Of a stretch of 64,000 nt of DNA, positions 1,362-36,732 are shown one piece after another. A program made the position numbers and the translations under genes. Where the stretch lies: assembly GCA_017889345.1 (NCBI GenBank), contig JAGHEJ010000003.1, positions 1 to 64,000 on the forward strand. The letters are read 5' to 3'. The notes beneath the pieces are model-generated. The model did not search any database and was not told where the DNA came from. It worked only from the letters and a program-made list of their open reading frames with translations. This stretch comes from Clostridiales bacterium. Its GTDB lineage: Bacteria; Bacillota; Clostridia; Clostridiales; Clostridiaceae. Position 1 is the first letter of the stretch. Every line of letters begins with the position of its first letter.

Positions 1362-4300
1362 TTAATATTTTAAATCCATACCTACAATTAAGTTTTCAAA
1401 CTCTTTTTCATTTATCATTCTATCTACAATATGTCTCTTTGCTTTAAAGGCATCTCCACCTGCATTTATAATTATTTCGTTATTGTAAAGATCAATCCAG
1501 AATTTTAATCCTTCACTATCTGGATCTCTATTAACAATGATCGAATATAAAACAGTTATAAGCTCATCTGTTGTATATTCCATTTCTGAAAATTCCTTCT
1601 CTGCAAATAATAAATTATCTACAAATTCTCTAGCTGAAATATCTTTTCTCTTAAGTCTATCCATCCAATATTGATATCCTCCCTCGTCAGGATCTCTTAA
1701 GAATGATCTATTATACACGTTGTATAAAAATTCTTGCGATTTTTCTTCAGGCTCTAGTTTAATATTTTCAAGAGTAAATGTAATTTCTTTTCCATCTTCT
1801 ACCTGAATTTTAATTTGAATATTTTCATAAGTTTTACATGGTACAAGACCTTTAATACTTATTTCACCATCAATAACTTCACAAGAAATATTCTCTATAT
1901 CACAAGAAACTCCCATATCATTTGTTACAGTAACATCTCCTAAATCTGGAAGACTATAAGTTAACGTATCTCCTGCACCTTTAAAATCCTCTACTTTTAT
2001 AGGAACTTCAAAAATTTCTTCACCATTACTGTCATTAGTTTTCTCAGTAACTAATTTGTCAACAATAATTTCCATTCTTCCTGGACCAACCTTAAAATTC
2101 TTAGATTCAACTTCAATTAAAATTTCATACTTCTTGTTATCACTGAGAAATGATTCTATATTAACAGGTGCATTTAGATTTGCTACTGATTCTATGGTAT
2201 AAATTTTCTTATACTCAGTTGAAGGTATTAGTACAGAATCTTCATTACCTGTGTTATTTGTGTTTCCAGAATTATCATTATTTTCAGAATTATCCTCACT
2301 AGAAGTTTTAGTTGCTTCTTCTGGTTTTTCAGATTCACTTTCTGGCTGAGTATATGGCAATTCTTTTAAATAAATATTTAATTTATCTTCATCCAATAAT
2401 GTTACTTCAGGAGGATACATCCAACTTAAAGTATAAATTTTCTTTATACTTTGTTCATCTTCCACATCAGTTATTTCAATGGTTGGTCTTATTGTTTTAT
2501 AATCTAATTCAAACTCAATAAACAATGTATCATTAAAAAATCCATGTGGATTGAAAGATAATAAGAAATCGTATTCTTTAAATTTATCCGGCAAAGTTAT
2601 TTCACAATCCAAAGTATTTTCTCTAAAAGCAGACAACAATGGTTTACTTAAATACTTTGTTTGACCTTTTTCTTTATAAAATATATCTAAATAAAAATCT
2701 ACGTAATTAAGTATTTCTAGATCATTCTCCATATCAGTCTTAATTCTAAGATTATCTCCCGTCATAGATTCTATTCTACAATTTTTTAAAGTAATAGCCT
2801 TTGTCATAAATTGAGTTATATAATCTGGTATGTCATTTGCCCTATTTTTTATTCTAATTAAAACATCATAAACCATTTTAGGATTAAGACCAAAAAAATT
2901 AAATGTAGTTAGATCTTGTAAATTATTTAAACCTTCTATATGCTCAACAAACATAACAGGAATTTCTGGATACTTACTCTCCTGATGCTCTTTAAAATAG
3001 ATTTCTAAAATATCTCCATCTATAAAAATATAATCTTTTGGATAAATAAGATGAATCTTTGCACTATGCTCTGTAATATCTGTTATATTTCCAGATGTTT
3101 CAGCAGATATAGTTTTAAAATCAACTTCCTTTTCAAATTTAACTCCACTTACTGTATACACAAGCTTTGCTGTATAATCCATTTTCATGTAACGAACAAT
3201 TGCTTCTCCTGAAAACACATTACTCATTTCAGATCCAGTTTTTATAAAAGAATTTCCTGCTGGATATCCATTAGTAACTTTCCTCTTAACATATATCTCA
3301 ACTTTATCCTTTTCATCAAATTCTGGAGAAGAATCATTAATTTCCCATTTAAATGTAGCACTATTTGGTTTAATAGTTTCTGGTTCAAATTTTGTTATCT
3401 GAAATTCTGCAGTCTTAAAATTTAAAGTCTTAGCTACAACAAATTTACCATCTACAACTCCATACTCCAAATATTCTGGCATTACACTTGTATTATATTT
3501 ATCTTCTTCTGTAGAACCTTCTCTAGTTTTTTGTAGTTGTTGAGGTTCAATCTCTTCTTGTTTATTTTGTTGTGATTGATCCTGATTATTCTGTTGACCT
3601 CCTATATCCGTTTGAGTATTATCTCCTTCAGGAGAATCTACATCTACACCACTTTCTTCTTCAGCTCCAGGCACTCCATCTTCTCCAGGTTTACCATCTT
3701 CCTGCGTTCCATCTCCTCCAAGACCTGCTTCACCATCCTCTTCTCCACCTCCAACATCTTCTCCTAGTTTAACAGGAATTGGTAAAGTTACTGCATCACC
3801 AAACATATCATTCTTTGTTCTAAGTACAACTTTAACGTCGTATTCCTTATTTGGAACTAAGTAATCTATATCAATAGAAGGAATAGTTTTTAAATCTACT
3901 TTTTTACTAACAATCTCTGGGACACTACTTCCTCCAGATGATGAACTTCCGCTACCATCTTCTTTTGGAACACTTGGCTCCGTAATTTGCTTATCAGCAT
4001 GTTCATATTGACAATACAATTTATATCCTGAGTTTTTACTTTCCTTAGGTTTTATATAAAGTTGTAATAAATCTCCATTTTCAAACTTTACGCTATCTTC
4101 AATCTTAACATCTATTACCGCTCTATTAAATTTTTGTTCCTTAACTGTTGAATTAAATTTTACAAATGGCTCTTCTTGAGATGAATCAGAGTCTTCTCTA
4201 GTTGAAAAAGTTTTAACTAAATCTTTCTTAATATAAAACTCATTAAACGTTGTATATTCTTTTCCATTTATAAGATAGACAAGTTTTACATCATATCCTC

Positions 4301-5798
4301 CCTTAACATCATTAGCTATATCAATACTTAATGATTTAACTTGATCTAAATTAGTATCCGCATAAAAATATGGCTTCTCTGAGTAATTAGAATCCTCCTT
4401 ATTTTTTATATAAATACTAACACTATCTCCTGGAAAAAATTTAAATTTATGATTCGTAAATTCCCATTTCATATTTAATTTTAAATTTTTCTGTTTATCT
4501 GAAGATGTATATACATCAAATTTCTTTAACTCAAAATTTTTAGTTATAAATTTATCTTCCTTTAATCTCAAAGTTTTTCCATCTTTGTAAAGAACCTCAT
4601 ATAAAATTTTGTAATTATTATTAAGTTTAAGATTATTGAAAACAAATTTATGATTTGGATTAAATGATATAGAATCTATTCTTTCAGAAAATATTTTCTT
4701 TGGCTCTAAAGAATCATTATCCTCATCAACCAAATATATATTTAAAATTTCCCCATCTTTAAATTTAAATTTATTATCAAAACCAAACGTCAAATTCAGA
4801 TTTCTTAAACTGGATAAATCTAAACTAGAATGTATTTTATAAAAATCATTTTTCTGCTTTATTGTTTTCTCAATTTTCTTCCCGCACAAATTATATACAA
4901 GTTTTATTTCATAAGAAGGTGAAACTTCTCCTGCATCTACTTCAGCTGAAAAAGTATTTGCATCAACTATTTTCACATTAGGTATACTTGAGTAATTTAA
5001 ATCACTGGATTTCTTAACATATATCTTAATACTATCATCTTTTAAAAATTTCAAATCCTTATTAGAAACTTCCCACTGAACTTTAATTTTTCTGTCAAAA
5101 ACCATTTTAGATTGAAGAGAAGTTATACTAAAAGGTTTAGTTTTAATATTTTTAACCGAAACTAAATTTATATCATTATCAAGTCTTGAAATTGAATAAA
5201 TATTATAACTACTTCCTGGTTTTAAACAAACATCATTAATTCGAAGTTTATTTTTGTAATTATTTTCAAGATCTATTGAATGCCTCTTATAAATAAAATC
5301 AAATTCATCTTGATTACTATTTGCTAGCTTTCCATAAATATCAATACCATACATAAAAATTAAATTTTTTCTGTCATAATCAACAGTTATATCACAAGAA
5401 TTAAGATTATCATTTTGGACATTCAAATTATTAGATACATATTTAAACTTCTGAGTGTATACATCTCTTTGATTAGTTGTTTTATTTTTAATATTAATTT
5501 CAAAGACATATTCATTTCCATCTACAAGTTCTTGTGATAAAAATTTTCGATTGTTTATATTTTTTAAACCGATCTCTTTATCATTTTTTTTATCTATTAA
5601 CTTTATTTCCCCAATTTCATATCCTTCTAAATATTCTGAAATCAAAAAAACTTCATACTTATCCTGCTCTTTAATTATGTACAAAGGTATTTTAAATTCT
5701 TTAGAGATAACTTTTTCCATTCCTAAAGCTACTAACAAAACTACCATAAAAATAGTTGTACAAAATCTTATCCCAATTCTCCTAAATAAATTTTTCAT
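1362..5798 (-). CDS. Giant secreted surface protein with repeated strand-rich modules and C-terminal DUF4214
   Basis: A 1478-residue protein. Residues 1-33 are a signal peptide or membrane anchor. The body repeats a module of about 90-110 residues marked by a signature like GDxxxIYxKxxxxxxY, seen near residues 250, 348, 460, 578, 832, 928, 1035 and 1137. The pattern suggests FnIII/Ig-like beta sandwiches, which is inferred. Two disordered linkers interrupt it: a Gly/Glu/Asp/Gln-rich stretch at about 676-760 and an Asn/Ser/Glu stretch at about 1150-1185. Residues about 1353-1459 match DUF4214 (paired NRDPDSEGLKFW and LRDPDEGGYQYW motifs), a domain found in secreted and surface proteins. There is no LPXTG motif. 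It is probably a cell-surface adhesin or structural protein. It is transcribed alone and ends at the bidirectional terminator. Confidence 0.8.
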   Translation of the reverse strand: MKNLFRRIGIRFCTTIFMVVLLVALGMEKVISKEFKIPLYIIKEQDKYEVFLISEYLEGYEIGEIKLIDKKNDKEIGLKNINNRKFLSQELVDGNEYVFEINIKNKTTNQRDVYTQKFKYVSNNLNVQNDNLNSCDITVDYDRKNLIFMYGIDIYGKLANSNQDEFDFIYKRHSIDLENNYKNKLRINDVCLKPGSSYNIYSISRLDNDINLVSVKNIKTKPFSITSLQSKMVFDRKIKVQWEVSNKDLKFLKDDSIKIYVKKSSDLNYSSIPNVKIVDANTFSAEVDAGEVSPSYEIKLVYNLCGKKIEKTIKQKNDFYKIHSSLDLSSLRNLNLTFGFDNKFKFKDGEILNIYLVDEDNDSLEPKKIFSERIDSISFNPNHKFVFNNLKLNNNYKILYEVLYKDGKTLRLKEDKFITKNFELKKFDVYTSSDKQKNLKLNMKWEFTNHKFKFFPGDSVSIYIKNKEDSNYSEKPYFYADTNLDQVKSLSIDIANDVKGGYDVKLVYLINGKEYTTFNEFYIKKDLVKTFSTREDSDSSQEEPFVKFNSTVKEQKFNRAVIDVKIEDSVKFENGDLLQLYIKPKESKNSGYKLYCQYEHADKQITEPSVPKEDGSGSSSSGGSSVPEIVSKKVDLKTIPSIDIDYLVPNKEYDVKVVLRTKNDMFGDAVTLPIPVKLGEDVGGGEEDGEAGLGGDGTQEDGKPGEDGVPGAEEESGVDVDSPEGDNTQTDIGGQQNNQDQSQQNKQEEIEPQQLQKTREGSTEEDKYNTSVMPEYLEYGVVDGKFVVAKTLNFKTAEFQITKFEPETIKPNSATFKWEINDSSPEFDEKDKVEIYVKRKVTNGYPAGNSFIKTGSEMSNVFSGEAIVRYMKMDYTAKLVYTVSGVKFEKEVDFKTISAETSGNITDITEHSAKIHLIYPKDYIFIDGDILEIYFKEHQESKYPEIPVMFVEHIEGLNNLQDLTTFNFFGLNPKMVYDVLIRIKNRANDIPDYITQFMTKAITLKNCRIESMTGDNLRIKTDMENDLEILNYVDFYLDIFYKEKGQTKYLSKPLLSAFRENTLDCEITLPDKFKEYDFLLSFNPHGFFNDTLFIEFELDYKTIRPTIEITDVEDEQSIKKIYTLSWMYPPEVTLLDEDKLNIYLKELPYTQPESESEKPEEATKTSSEDNSENNDNSGNTNNTGNEDSVLIPSTEYKKIYTIESVANLNAPVNIESFLSDNKKYEILIEVESKNFKVGPGRMEIIVDKLVTEKTNDSNGEEIFEVPIKVEDFKGAGDTLTYSLPDLGDVTVTNDMGVSCDIENISCEVIDGEISIKGLVPCKTYENIQIKIQVEDGKEITFTLENIKLEPEEKSQEFLYNVYNRSFLRDPDEGGYQYWMDRLKRKDISAREFVDNLLFAEKEFSEMEYTTDELITVLYSIIVNRDPDSEGLKFWIDLYNNEIIINAGGDAFKAKRHIVDRMINEKEFENLIVGMDLKY

Positions 5799-32153: not shown

Positions 32154-33458
32154 TTATCCAACAAGTATTTTATGAGTAATTTGTTTAACCCTCACCATCA
32201 AATTTATAAATAAGAAGGATAGACCTTCTGATACAATAAGACTTACCCAAATTCCTATTATTCCAAACAATTTTGCTAAAACAATTAAACTTATAGGTAA
32301 AAATATAAATGATCTAAATAAACAAATTATATTTGAATACTTTGGTATTTCAATTGCTTGATAATAAACAGTTATAGTTAAATTTATTCCTAGAATAAAG
32401 AAAGCTAAATTTGTTACATTAAGTCCAAAATATGCAATATTTATGATTTCAGCATCTGTTGTAAAAACACCTATTATCTCTCTTCCCCAAACTAACGAAA
32501 GAAGAGCATATGTTAATGTGAGAACAAAACCAAATCTTTTAGAAAATCCATAAAATTTAAGCATATCTTGTTCCTTTTTCTCACCAAAACTATAGCTAAT
32601 AAGTGGTTGAACTCCAAAATTCATTCCAAGAAGTATCATGTAAATATTTGCATTAATGTAATTAATAACACTAAAAGCAGTAATTCCTTTCATTCCAACA
32701 AATACAATAAGAGCAATATTATAGAAAAATATAATTATTGAAAATGTTATTTCTCCTAAAAAAGAAGGAAATCCAATAGACACAATATTTTTTAAAGTTT
32801 TATTTTCCGTTGGAGATAATTTTAATTTTAAGTTTCCTCTTTTAAATAAAAAATGACATAACAAAATTGATATGGTGATAATTTGTCCGACTCCTGTCGC
32901 AAGAGCAGCTCCTTTTATTCCCCAATTAAAATTGAAGATAAATACATAATCAAAAATTATATTTAATATTGCACCAAAAATATTTGCAACCATACCAAGT
33001 CTTGGATTTCCATCATTTCTCACAAAACTATTCAAAACTATTCCAATTAAATTTGCACTGCAAAAAATCGAATAAAACCTCAAATACTCAGAAGAATATA
33101 AAAGCATTTCATCTCTAGCTCCAATTCCATACATTACACTTCGTGCAAAAACAAATGCAATGACACTTAAAGAAAAACTCACAATAACAGCAAATTTTAT
33201 AGTTTGTCCAAAAATATTTTGAGCTCTAACATTATCTTGTTGACCAAAACTTTTCGAAACTAAAGCTCCACCACCAACTGCCATCATCGTTGCAATTCCA
33301 AAATACATTATTGTAATTGGAAGCACCATATTAACAGCCGCAAGCCCAACATCTCCTATTCCTTTTCCAACAAAAATTCCATCAACAATTGTATATAATG
33401 ATGTTACAAACATAGCAAACATTGAAGAAATAGAATACTTAAAAAACTTTTTTACCAT
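32154..33458 (-). CDS. MATE family efflux transporter
   Basis: 434 residues with about twelve hydrophobic segments. VDGIFVGKGIGDVGLAAVN near the N-terminus and the repeat of that pattern in the second half are MATE signatures. MATE proteins expel cationic drugs or metabolites in exchange for Na+ or H+. It resembles the MepA-like branch of Firmicutes; the substrate cannot be told. Monocistronic by position, with nothing regulatory recognised upstream. Confidence 0.9.
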   Translation of the reverse strand: MVKKFFKYSISSMFAMFVTSLYTIVDGIFVGKGIGDVGLAAVNMVLPITIMYFGIATMMAVGGGALVSKSFGQQDNVRAQNIFGQTIKFAVIVSFSLSVIAFVFARSVMYGIGARDEMLLYSSEYLRFYSIFCSANLIGIVLNSFVRNDGNPRLGMVANIFGAILNIIFDYVFIFNFNWGIKGAALATGVGQIITISILLCHFLFKRGNLKLKLSPTENKTLKNIVSIGFPSFLGEITFSIIIFFYNIALIVFVGMKGITAFSVINYINANIYMILLGMNFGVQPLISYSFGEKKEQDMLKFYGFSKRFGFVLTLTYALLSLVWGREIIGVFTTDAEIINIAYFGLNVTNLAFFILGINLTITVYYQAIEIPKYSNIICLFRSFIFLPISLIVLAKLFGIIGIWVSLIVSEGLSFLFINLMVRVKQITHKILVG

Positions 33459-33514
33459 AACTGTTCATTCTCCAATACAAAAATTTAATATAAGAGATAG
33501 TTTGTACATTTTTT

Positions 33515-33553
33515 CAAAATAAAAACCACCAAACTTTTAAAATTTGGTGGTTT
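33515..33553 (-). terminator. Terminator of the tRNA-Arg transcript
   Basis: An 11-bp perfect stem AAACCACCAAA/TTTGGTGGTTT with a 9-nt loop lies just past the tRNA 3' end on the minus strand, with TTATTTT following. Confidence 0.75.
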
Positions 33554-33576
33554 AAAATTATACACATATATGGCTA

Positions 33577-33653
33577 TGGTGCACCTAGCAGGATTCGAAC
33601 CTGCGACCTTTGGATTCGAAGTCCAACACTCTATCCAACTGAGCTATAGATGC
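33577..33653 (-). tRNA. tRNA-Arg (anticodon UCG)
   Basis: 77 nt on the minus strand beginning GCATCTATAGCTCAGTTGG. The acceptor stem GCATCTA/TAGGTGC pairs fully (one T-G), the D arm is standard, and the anticodon arm TTGGA-CTTCGAA-TCCAA gives anticodon TCG. The T arm is GCAGG-TTCGAAT-CCTGC. The terminal ACCA is encoded. It reads CGA (and other CGN by wobble). Confidence 0.97.
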
Positions 33654-33735
33654 AAATACCTTTACATTATACTAAATAGTATTTAATCAATTCAACATTA
33701 AACACTATCAAAATTATAAATACGAAATTAAATTT

Positions 33736-34086
33736 CTAAACTTTATCTTCAGAAATTAAATCATCTACATCTAAAATTGGAATTACATTGATTAAAGGTT
33801 CATCATAAGGGTGAACATCTCTAATAGCTTTAATTACTTTCTTAAGATCATTTTTTATACAAATTGTTTCAATCTTATTTTCTAAAACTTCACAAAGAGC
33901 ATTTTCAAATCCAAGATATGGATTTGATCCTTTTAAAGGTCTAAACACTCCTTTAACTTCACTTACACATATACAATTGTCATAATTTCCAACTTTTCCT
34001 ATTCCAATATCGTTTAGTGCCTCTCTGACTTTATCTGTAAAATTGTAAGGAATATATACTTCGATTTTAAATTTTTCAAATACCAT
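33736..34086 (-). CDS. YqfO/NIF3-insert-like protein
   Basis: 116 residues from the ATG at 34086, which has GGAG 6 bases upstream; a longer reading adds 14 residues whose codons contain that ribosome site. FKIEVYIPYNFTDKVREAL, GKVGNYDNC, FRPLKGSNPYLG and HPYDEPLINVIPI match the small PII/CutA-like domain that is inserted in some NIF3/YqfO proteins and also occurs alone. Its biochemical function is not established. Confidence 0.8.
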   Translation of the reverse strand: MVFEKFKIEVYIPYNFTDKVREALNDIGIGKVGNYDNCICVSEVKGVFRPLKGSNPYLGFENALCEVLENKIETICIKNDLKKVIKAIRDVHPYDEPLINVIPILDVDDLISEDKV

Positions 34087-34210
34087 AAAAAACTCCATAA
34101 AAATAAATCTATGATATAAAAATATCACAAATTCTAAAAGAATAAAATATTTATATCCATTATTTGATTTAAATTTTGTTTACTTTTTTAAATATTTTTT
34201 AATAATTTTG

Positions 34211-34239: not shown

Positions 34240-34277
34240 TTAATTTATAATTTATTTTTGAAAGGTTGAAAATAATT

Positions 34278-35861
34278 ATGAATAAGACTACAAGTTTTAC
34301 AAAATTGAGCAAAAGTTTATTATTAGGAGCATCTGCTACTTTTTTATATACTGTTATTACTGATGAAACAGCTAACGCAATGTTTAGACCTCTTTCGAAA
34401 ATTCAACCAATTTACCAAAAAATACTTGCTGCAAGTAAGACTGGTTCCCAAGATGCAACATCTACATTAAGAAATACCTTAGGTTCTTCTTCAATAGGTG
34501 GTCAAAATCAAAATTCTTTAACTACTAGACCTTTAAGTAATCCACTCACTCCAATTGAAACTCCACAATCTCAAGGTAATACTAACCCATCTAGTAATAG
34601 ATCTCGTCATTCTTACTCTGGCATAAATAATAATAGTTTAACTAATACAAATCAAGACAAAAGTTCACCGACTGGTGGACAAATTATAACTTCTAGTTCA
34701 ATTAATAAACCTGGTTTAGGGAACTTTATCTCTAATCGTCTTAAAAATTTTGAATATTCTTCTACAAATAATCAAAATGGTTCTAACAATCAACCTAATA
34801 ATATTGCTACAGGTCAAGTTGCAAATTTAAAATCAACTTTTGAAACAAATAACAAAACATCTGGAAGTAACAAAAATTCTAATAATAATCAACATACTTC
34901 ACTTAAAAATCAAAGTTTAAATTTAAGCCAAGATAAAGGTAAAACTTCTACTTTAGTTGCAAAATTTTATGATTCTACTCCTGAAACTCCACAAACACCA
35001 CCTCAAACTCCTCCAAAAGTTTCAGAGTTAAGGAAAAATTTTGAACCTGAAACTCAATCAAATAAAAATTCTAAGCAAGCTGCTTTAGCTAAATTTTTAG
35101 GAGGAAAAGTTCAACAAAACAAAACAAAACAACAATCTTCAAGTTTAAGCGGAAGTTCTGAAACTGGTAAGACTAACACATCTGCATCCCAAAGTTCAGA
35201 TAGTACACCTACTAAAGGTGGAGAAAAAGTTTTACAATTAGCTGCACAATTTAGTGGAACTGCCCCTAAAACTACTGAATCTCCAGGAACTTCAGCTCCT
35301 CCAAAAGTTTCAGATTTAAGGAAAAATTTTGAAACTTCGCAAAATCAATCGAGTACAAGTTCTACTCAACCTACTAGTGTAACTTCTTTAGCTAAACCAT
35401 TTGGAGGAACTGTTCAACAAAATAAACAAAAACAACAAGCTACTCAAAATAAAAATAGTGTTTTAAATTTACGTGGAAACTTTGAATCTAATAAACCTAA
35501 AACTCAAAGTTCAAAGAAAAACTCTCAAGGTGGAGAAAATGTTACTTATTTAGTTGCACAATTTAGTGGAACTGCTCCTAAAACTCCTAGTACTCCGGAA
35601 GAACCAACTCCAGTTCCTCCAAAAGTTTCAGAGTTAAAGAAAAATTTTGAGGCGCCAAAAAATGAACCAGTTCCAACTCCAGAACAAACTCCAATTAGTG
35701 TTCGTAACTTAGCTAAAACTTTTGAGGGTACAGATAAACAACAAACACCATCTCCATCTCAAGAAAATGTAAAAACTTTAGCTAAAACCTTTGGTGGAAT
35801 AAAAGGTGGAAACAAAAGTAATAGTCCTAAACAACTTACATATGAAGAAATGATAAAATAA
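34278..35861 (+). CDS. Secreted repeat protein with VxxLxxxF motifs; similar to SFB antigen P3340
   Basis: 527 residues. The ATG at 34278 is chosen over an in-frame TTG at 34266 that touches the AAAGG site. Signal peptide in residues 1-34 (cleavage after TANA). The remainder is disordered, rich in Asn, Gln, Ser, Thr, Pro and Lys. A motif VxxLxxxF(E/G/S)(G) occurs ten times (residues 181, 248, 318, 344, 368, 395, 422, 450, 475, 498), with weaker copies near 151, 226 and 270. From 318 on the spacing is 23-28 residues. Proline-rich linkers such as TPQTPPQTPPK separate some. QFSGTAPKT occurs at 324 and 428 and resembles the P3340 T-cell epitope QFSGAVPNKTD as I recall it. No anchoring motif. Monocistronic, with a strong promoter and terminator. 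Confidence 0.8.
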   Translation: MNKTTSFTKLSKSLLLGASATFLYTVITDETANAMFRPLSKIQPIYQKILAASKTGSQDATSTLRNTLGSSSIGGQNQNSLTTRPLSNPLTPIETPQSQGNTNPSSNRSRHSYSGINNNSLTNTNQDKSSPTGGQIITSSSINKPGLGNFISNRLKNFEYSSTNNQNGSNNQPNNIATGQVANLKSTFETNNKTSGSNKNSNNNQHTSLKNQSLNLSQDKGKTSTLVAKFYDSTPETPQTPPQTPPKVSELRKNFEPETQSNKNSKQAALAKFLGGKVQQNKTKQQSSSLSGSSETGKTNTSASQSSDSTPTKGGEKVLQLAAQFSGTAPKTTESPGTSAPPKVSDLRKNFETSQNQSSTSSTQPTSVTSLAKPFGGTVQQNKQKQQATQNKNSVLNLRGNFESNKPKTQSSKKNSQGGENVTYLVAQFSGTAPKTPSTPEEPTPVPPKVSELKKNFEAPKNEPVPTPEQTPISVRNLAKTFEGTDKQQTPSPSQENVKTLAKTFGGIKGGNKSNSPKQLTYEEMIK

Positions 35862-35973: not shown

Positions 35974-36732
35974 TTATCTAACACTATTAAGCATCGACCA
36001 CATTTCATCAACAGTTGTTATACCTTTACTTGACATTTGATACGCTCTTTGAGCTAAAAGCATTTCTGTCATTTCCTGAGATACATCAACGTTTGACATT
36101 TCTAAATGATTTTGATAAAGATCTGAGTTAACTTGAAACATTATAATATCTTGGCTAACTGGCACAAATTTATTATCACCTTTAGAAATAAGTGAATCAT
36201 TTCCTGATGCGTCGTATAAATTTATTTTTCCAATAGATTGTCCATTTGATGTTGATATAAAACCACTTTTATCTATTACAAGATTTGTATTTGTAAGTCC
36301 TGTATTTAATGGATCAATTCCAGCATCATAAGTAACTTCAATTAAATTTCCATCTTTATCTGTTAATCTACCAAATGTATCTACATTTAAAGATCCATTT
36401 CTTGTATAAAATACTTGTCCATTTCCATCAGTTATTTTAAAAAATCCATTTCCATCAATAGCAACATCTGTATTCATTCCTGTGGATTGAAGAGATCCTT
36501 GGTTTTTATTTCTAGTTATTTGTGATATCTTCACTCCATTTCCAATCAGAGAAATATTTTCAGAAGTTGGAATACCTTTTCCATTTAAATCTTTATAAAA
36601 CAAATTTGCAAAGGAACTGTCAATTTTTTTGTATCCATGTGTATTTATGTTTACCATATTATTTGCTATTATATCTAATTTTTGTTGCTGAGCCATCATT
36701 CCCGTTCTACTCGTATTTAAAATGTGAAACAT
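35974..36732 (-). CDS. flgG: Flagellar distal rod protein FlgG
   Basis: 252 residues. The N-terminal rod-protein helix (GMMAQQQKLDIIANNMVNIN) and the C-terminal signature SNVDVSQEMTEMLLAQRAYQ are those of FlgG-type rod/hook proteins. GNGFFKITDGNGQVFYTRNG marks the central domain. FlgG forms the distal rod that links the basal body to the hook. It is the last gene of the flagellar operon. An assignment to the FlhP branch of the same family is also possible. Confidence 0.88.
   Translation of the reverse strand: MFHILNTSRTGMMAQQQKLDIIANNMVNINTHGYKKIDSSFANLFYKDLNGKGIPTSENISLIGNGVKISQITRNKNQGSLQSTGMNTDVAIDGNGFFKITDGNGQVFYTRNGSLNVDTFGRLTDKDGNLIEVTYDAGIDPLNTGLTNTNLVIDKSGFISTSNGQSIGKINLYDASGNDSLISKGDNKFVPVSQDIIMFQVNSDLYQNHLEMSNVDVSQEMTEMLLAQRAYQMSSKGITTVDEMWSMLNSVR

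What the first reader, a model, noticed from the sequence alone, without database searches (positions are those of the whole stretch)
34278..35861. Secreted protein with a ~26-residue VxxLxxxF repeat and an SFB T-cell-epitope-like sequence
Seen: a signal peptide, then ten copies of VxxLxxxF. The last eight are spaced 23-28 residues apart in a disordered Pro/Gln/Asn matrix. Two copies extend to AQFSGTAPKT. From memory, the dominant Th17 epitope of mouse SFB protein P3340 is QFSGAVPNKTD, so this would be a divergent homologue whose epitope lies in a repeat unit. Short helices alternating with proline-rich linkers is also the layout of host-acting multivalent bacterial proteins such as EspFU. The repeated helix could therefore bind a host or cell-wall partner several times. 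That function is inference.
Basis: partly seen in the sequence, partly recalled or inferred. Interest (0 to 1): 0.9.

Follow-up and report, generated by a model that had tools for sequence, protein, structure and literature searches.

The report
SFB secreted multi-helix repeat protein
A gut bacterium that clings to the intestinal wall (a segmented filamentous bacterium) encodes a secreted, mostly unfolded protein that displays the same tiny helix at least ten times; it is not the famous Th17 antigen P3340, but the helix recurs in otherwise different secreted proteins of related bacteria from rat and turkey, so it is probably a docking motif for a partner still to be found.

Summary
Window 34278-35861 (+) encodes a 527-aa protein with a signal peptide, pI about 10, and exactly ten VxxLxxxF copies, the last eight 23-28 residues apart. 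Shuffles of its composition give 0.03 copies on average. A single-sequence AlphaFold2 model is mostly disordered, and most helices beyond the N-terminus fall on motif copies.

It is not a P3340 homologue. I located the rat P3340 orthologue from the published epitope peptide, and with it the window genome's own orthologue on another contig (G000:C6:31992-35162, E 4e-167). The finding's protein does not align with the rat P3340. The epitope-like AQFSGTAPKT is the end of one motif type inside a ~100-aa super-repeat that duplicated.

New: VxxLxxxF recurs in a set of secreted, Ser/Thr/Pro/Asn-rich SFB proteins: a positional counterpart beside flgF in turkey SFB, two turkey neighbours, five further frames in the own genome, and one rat protein. 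A motif profile finds nothing convincing in 35 other Clostridia.

Best reading: an SFB-specific family of secreted disordered proteins presenting short amphipathic helices, multivalently in this member, to an unknown partner, perhaps host. The spacing equals the core of the N-WASP GBD C-helix motif, but no copy meets the full motif.

The parts
34278..35861 (+). CDS of the 527-aa secreted repeat protein (P0001)
   Evidence: own-genome single copy, no match at E<=10 in rat and turkey SFB by whole-protein search
34260..34265 (+). ribosome-binding-site-like GAAAGG
   Evidence: read directly
34278..34379 (+). signal peptide (residues 1-34, ...TANA|MFRP)
   Evidence: sequence and hydropathy; the mature start AxAM(F/I) recurs in the relatives
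34818..34841 (+). motif copy 1 VANLKSTF(E)
   Evidence: AF2 helix 179-190
35019..35042 (+). motif copy 2 VSELRKNF(E), type A
   Evidence: AF2 helix 248-251
35229..35252 (+). motif copy 3 VLQLAAQF, type C, followed by SGTAPKT
35307..35330 (+). motif copy 4 VSDLRKNF(E), type A
   Evidence: AF2 helix 344-352
35379..35402 (+). motif copy 5 VTSLAKPF(GGT), type B
35460..35483 (+). motif copy 6 VLNLRGNF(E)
35541..35564 (+). motif copy 7 VTYLVAQF, type C, followed by SGTAPKT
35625..35648 (+). motif copy 8 VSELKKNF(E), type A
35700..35723 (+). motif copy 9 VRNLAKTF(E), type B
35769..35792 (+). motif copy 10 VKTLAKTF(GG), type B
   Evidence: AF2 helix 496-505
34728..34751 (+). degenerate copy ISNRLKNF(E)
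   Evidence: AF2 helix 146-158
34944..34967 (+). degenerate copy TSTLVAKF, C-unit of super-repeat 1, here followed by YDSTPETP and not SGTAPKT
35076..35099 (+). degenerate copy QAALAKFL(GG), type B
   Evidence: AF2 helix 266-274
35244..35273 (+). AQFSGTAPKT, first epitope-like copy
   Evidence: explained by the super-repeat
35556..35585 (+). AQFSGTAPKT, second epitope-like copy
   Evidence: explained by the super-repeat
34962..35798 (+). three ~100-aa super-repeats (C-A-B order) that carry the last copies
   Evidence: direct repeats D1, D3, D6 with spacing 288-318 nt; protein self-alignment scores 136.5 and 176.5

Best explanation
The gene encodes a secreted, basic, intrinsically disordered protein of a segmented filamentous bacterium (SFB). 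It works as a multivalent docking scaffold: each VxxLxxxF(E) segment is disordered when free and forms a two-turn amphipathic helix (V, L and F on one face) when it binds, and ten or more copies on flexible linkers let one molecule gather many copies of one partner. Shown: the repeat, its statistical reality, the disorder pattern, the predicted secretion, the recurrence of the motif in other secreted SFB proteins, and the positional counterpart in turkey SFB. Inferred: that the helix binds a partner, that multivalency is the point, and that the partner is more likely on the host side (about 60:40) than part of the SFB envelope.
For: Ten perfect copies against 0.03 expected. V, L and F are invariant in all ten copies while neighbouring positions vary freely. 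Of the 17 Phe in the protein, 13 lie in the motif or a degenerate copy. AF2 gives mean pLDDT 43.5, with most helices beyond residue 70 on motif or degenerate copies. Turkey SFB has at the same place, convergent with flgF, a secreted 236-aa protein with four V..[LI]...F copies in a Ser/Thr matrix, although the two proteins barely align otherwise (BLASTP E 0.02, on the motifs). A profile trained only on the window and turkey units picked out further secreted low-complexity proteins in the own genome (C5, C7) and in rat. The refined profile has 24 matches at E<=0.04, all in the three SFB genomes; the best in 35 other Clostridia is 0.10. SFB attach intimately, polymerise actin beneath the holdfast and transfer surface proteins into enterocytes (PMC6117376, PMC7474095).
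Against: No binding partner, export assay or expression is known. The single-sequence model has low confidence and cannot show that the helices form. Several relatives carry only one copy, so multivalency is not a family rule. The rat SFB genome has nothing at this locus (66 bp between the neighbours), so the gene is dispensable to at least one SFB. Most profile matches are training units. A Sec-exported protein would still need a way into host cytosol to meet a cytosolic host target.
Confidence: 0.55

Rival explanations
1. Bacterial-surface scaffold: the basic, anchorless secreted protein re-associates with the SFB cell wall, and the repeated helix binds an SFB surface protein (S-layer, hair-like layer or tip component) rather than a host protein.
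For: SFB have no sortase, and basic anchorless secreted proteins have been proposed to re-associate with the surface (PMC7474095); mature pI 10.0, net charge +28, and the relatives computed are basic too; the same motif in SFB of different hosts fits a conserved bacterial partner as well as a conserved host one.
Against: No envelope partner is known; copy number and linkers vary widely between hosts, which is more typical of host-facing proteins.
Confidence: 0.3
2. [quoted passage not shown]
For: The motif V-x2-L-x3-F has the same spacing as positions 2-9 of the published GBD C-helix expression [ILV][VA]xx[LI]xxx[LM] (PMC11253601); 9 of 10 copies also obey its no-Pro rule when F is allowed at the last place; repeats in Pro-rich linkers as in EspFU (PMC2567903); SFB induce pedestal-like actin (PMC6117376).
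Against: No copy in P0001 or seven relatives meets the full expression: the residue before V is polar (S, N, K, T...), not I/L/V, and the last is F, not L/M. No delivery route into the cytosol is known. i,i+3,i+7 hydrophobic spacing is generic for amphipathic helices.
Confidence: 0.08
3. Divergent homologue of the Th17 antigen P3340 whose epitope lies in a repeat unit.
For: QFSG, P and KT are shared with QFSGAVPNKT, with a one-residue gap.
Against: The genome has its own full-length P3340 orthologue elsewhere; no alignment between the proteins; different architecture, with no DUF4214 here; the motif context explains the similarity; super-repeat 1 has KFYDSTPETP in its place.
Confidence: 0.01
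4. Little specific function: a low-complexity surface or decoy protein growing by repeat duplication.
For: Composition, rapid divergence, intragenic super-repeats, absence at the rat locus.
Against: V, L and F are kept at every copy while linkers are not, and the same motif occurs in relatives with different linkers.
Confidence: 0.06

Closest known systems
EspFU/TccP of enterohaemorrhagic E. coli (published descriptions PMC2567903, PMC11253601)
   Same: repeated short amphipathic helix in Pro-rich disordered linkers; similar i,i+3,i+7 hydrophobic spacing; bacterium that forms actin pedestals
   Different: 47-residue near-identical repeats there against ~25-residue diverged units here; strict GBD motif not met; Sec signal peptide here, type III secretion there; no partner shown
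Brucella NpeA (PMC11253601)
   Same: secreted, signal peptide, almost wholly disordered, one amphipathic-helix short linear motif
   Different: single, strict GBD motif; type IV secretion-dependent; no sequence relation claimed
SFB Th17 antigen P3340 (SFBNYU_003340) and orthologues
   Same: secreted protein of SFB; a QFSG..P.KT string
   Different: ~1050 aa, folded domains and DUF4214 C-terminus; a separate gene in the same genome; no homology
Basic, anchorless secreted hypothetical proteins of SFB (class noted in PMC7474095)
   Same: signal peptide, high pI, no anchor, low identity between SFB
   Different: that paper names no motif or repeat; a VxxLxxxF family is not described in the papers I could search

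Membership tests
P3340 family | full-length homology to P3340 | tested here: not met
   BLASTP best E 0.43, outside the epitope; the true orthologue is at G000:C6:31992-35162
P3340 family | DUF4214-containing C-terminus | tested here: not met
   no Pfam family in P0001; DUF4214 E 1e-9 in rat P3340
P3340 family | epitope inside LVFDVQFSGAVPNKT context | tested here: not met
   context here is VLQLAAQFSGTAPKT / VTYLVAQFSGTAPKT
GBD C-helix mimics (EspFU-like) | [ILV][VA][^P][^P][LI][^P][^P][^P][LM] | tested here: not met
   zero strict matches in P0001 and seven relatives; relaxed form without the first residue and with F last matches 9 of 10 copies
GBD C-helix mimics (EspFU-like) | binding to N-WASP/WASP GBD | not testable with these tools
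   needs binding assay or complex prediction
GBD C-helix mimics (EspFU-like) | delivery into host cytosol | not testable with these tools
   only a Sec-type signal peptide is visible
SFB secreted VxxLxxxF proteins (proposed here) | signal peptide with mature start near A-x-A-M/L | tested here: met
   P0001, C5, intact C7 members, turkey T2 fit closely; T1, T3 and rat less closely; one C7 copy has a stop inside the signal-peptide codons and one a frame break after it
SFB secreted VxxLxxxF proteins (proposed here) | V..[LI]...F in a low-complexity matrix | tested here: met
   23 regex matches in eight proteins, one of them in the C5 signal peptide; SFB-only profile matches at E<0.1 among 38 genomes

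The most novel reading that the evidence does not exclude
SFB carry a lineage-specific repertoire of secreted disordered proteins that present host-mimicking docking motifs in multivalent arrays (VxxLxxxF helices here; (K/R)xTQT dynein-light-chain-like motifs in a rat member), and these proteins drive the actin pedestal and antigen uptake at the attachment site, the mechanism of which is unknown.
Probability: 0.12. Interest if true: 0.92.

Novelty: new variant of a known kind. Interest (0 to 1): 0.5.

Why it matters
The SFB components that attach to enterocytes, reshape their actin and set host specificity have not been identified (PMC7474095). A secreted protein family with one conserved short motif on diverging linkers gives a concrete, small, testable candidate: a single ~20-residue peptide with V/L/F controls can be used to fish for the partner. 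It also removes a false lead, since this protein is not the P3340 antigen.

Tried and rejected
P3340 homology: rejected. Exact and 3-mismatch DNA patterns for QFSGAVPNKTD found nothing in the three SFB genomes; the longer published peptide LVFDVQFSGAVPNKT then located the rat orthologue. Pfam: no family for P0001 or the eight relatives scanned. PDB: no match to a single motif peptide or the rat TQT array; the motif profile gave E 0.045 to a chain titled 'possible exported protein' (3may), judged chance. Mouse SFB, the source of the original P3340, was not retrieved by the flgF scan, so mouse family members were not examined. MHC-II binding prediction was not run; no such tool, and the host and its MHC alleles are unknown.

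Full report
Observation. Window 34278-35861 (+) is an open frame of 527 codons with an ATG, a GAAAGG upstream and a signal peptide ending ANA|MF. It stands alone: the upstream neighbour (NIF3-like, 33736-34128) is on the other strand, and flgF (35974-36732) converges with it. The mature protein is 493 aa, pI 10.0, net charge +28, with Ser, Thr, Asn, Lys, Gln and Pro together about 64% and no Cys or Trp. V..L...F occurs exactly ten times (residues 181, 248, 318, 344, 368, 395, 422, 450, 475, 498). Shuffling gives 0.03 on average and never more than 2 in 5000 trials. The last eight are 23-28 residues apart. Three degenerate copies bring the total to about 13; 13 of the 17 Phe sit in these units. 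Other frames of at least 200 codons in the window (all six reading frames) have 0.8 V..[LI]...F per 1000 residues, against about 19 here.

Anatomy. The last copies are organised in super-repeats of about 100 aa in the order C (..LAAQFSGTAPKT..), A (PPKVSxLRKNFE), B (..LAKxFGGTxQQNK). They are visible as DNA repeats with 288-318 nt spacing and 71-82% identity and as protein self-alignments. The two AQFSGTAPKT strings are the C units of super-repeats 2 and 3; the first super-repeat has KFYDSTPETP there. Within the ten copies V, L and F never change while positions 2, 3, 5, 6 and 7 vary. Codon usage in this AT-rich gene is too uniform for a synonymous-change test (V is GTT or GTA; the motif L is always TTA, F always TTT). 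AlphaFold2 on the single sequence gives mean pLDDT 43.5. Helices after residue 70 are 146-158, 179-190, 248-251, 266-274, 344-352, 496-505 and a C-terminal 522-526; all but the last coincide with a copy or degenerate copy. Low confidence means this shows disorder and helix propensity, no more.

The P3340 claim. Two papers give the mouse epitope as QFSGAVPNKT, within LVFDVQFSGAVPNKT, in an independently folded domain of a large protein (PMC6642154, PMC11343098). Searching that 15-mer found one place in the 1.5-Mb complete relative G001, 79% identical over 14 residues in a 1073-aa frame. G001's length of 1,515,556 bp matches rat-Yit SFB, from memory. That frame reads GKDLVFDVQFNGQVPNN at the epitope and carries DUF4214. 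With it as query, full-length orthologues appear in turkey SFB and in the window's own genome (G000:C6:31992-35162, E 4e-167), as well as many proteins sharing only the DUF4214-containing end. The three align end to end, and the own-genome protein has FRFSVEYNGNLPST at the epitope position. P0001 does not align with rat P3340. The QFSG resemblance is a short coincidence at the end of the VxxLxxxF unit.

The family. P0001 as a whole finds nothing in rat or turkey SFB even at E 10. But turkey SFB (G002; identity confirmed by record NZ_LXFF01000016.1, SFB-turkey UMNCA01) has at the same place, convergent with flgF, a secreted 236-aa protein with GTVANLADRF, GNVKTLTQRF, GNVARLSQRF and GNVARIRKMF in a Ser/Thr matrix. 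Two further secreted proteins with one and two copies follow it. A profile of window and turkey units, run on the three SFB genomes, brought up new secreted low-complexity proteins: own genome C5 (GSVQSIISRFEG) and C7 (GSKVSSLVARFESL), and rat (VKSLIAKFN, VKSLVKKFN). The C5 protein is homologous over its length to a turkey neighbour (E 5e-22), which shows real descent. C7 4271-16328 is a run of ten or more related secreted genes, four frames of which carry the motif; two of those are interrupted, one by a stop within the signal-peptide codons and one by a frame break. The refined profile over 38 genomes gives 24 matches at E<=0.04, all in SFB; the best elsewhere is 0.10. Most of the 24 are training units; the independent support is the first, narrower profile and C7:8150. 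The rat genome has no gene at the flgF locus.

Function. A short hydrophobic triad at i, i+3, i+7, with frequent N-cap residues (S, N, T) before V and Glu after F, repeated on flexible linkers, is the usual design of a multivalent docking helix. Whether the partner is host or bacterial is open. For the host: SFB attach intimately, raise actin under the holdfast and transfer proteins into enterocytes. For the bacterium: basic anchorless secreted proteins are thought to re-associate with the SFB surface. The EspFU comparison was tested against the published GBD C-helix expression. The spacing is identical, and two of the four defining positions (V and L) are met, but no copy meets the expression: the first position is polar and the last is Phe. 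So it has the layout of EspFU but does not qualify as a member.

Novelty. No Pfam family matches, and nothing like the motif is described in the SFB papers that could be read; the library lacks several key ones. Multivalent disordered secreted proteins are a known kind; this SFB-specific motif family appears to be an undescribed variant.

Noticed in passing
L064:6220-7083 (-), rat SFB G001:C1 about 242219-243082: The rat member carries 12 TQT motifs at a basic 10-residue spacing (shuffle mean 0.5, maximum 4), seven of them (K)xTQT, the published consensus for dynein light chain LC8/DYNLL1 (PMC3789673), interleaved with two VKSLxxKFN helices. All six KxTQTP-coding sites of that genome lie in this gene.
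   Followed up: partly
L063:4271-16328 (G000:C7): Tandem array of ten or more paralogous secreted Ser/Thr/Pro-rich proteins with a shared signal peptide (..LLYxLPLAGxGLIxTxQ..AMF); at least two members are interrupted by a stop or frame break, either real decay, phase variation or assembly error.
   Followed up: partly
G000:C6:31992-37909: The own genome's P3340 orthologue is followed by a second, more diverged copy (34% over 522-1065) with one in-frame TAA; turkey SFB also has two copies in tandem (C21).
   Followed up: no
window 1362-5798 (-): 1478-aa protein whose C-terminal end matches the DUF4214-containing end of rat P3340 (37% identity, E 7e-30); about 25 such places per SFB genome at E<=0.001.
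   Followed up: no
L018:4036-8719 versus window 33458-34128: The stretch between the MATE transporter and the NIF3-like gene holds an ABC transporter and two-component system in rat SFB, but only short DNA with a tRNA (33580-33653) in the window.
   Followed up: no
L062:11214-12149 (G000:C5): A secreted relative with one motif copy has a tandem array of TKPKIEQST/TRPKVEQST units and a C-terminal domain shared with turkey.
   Followed up: partly
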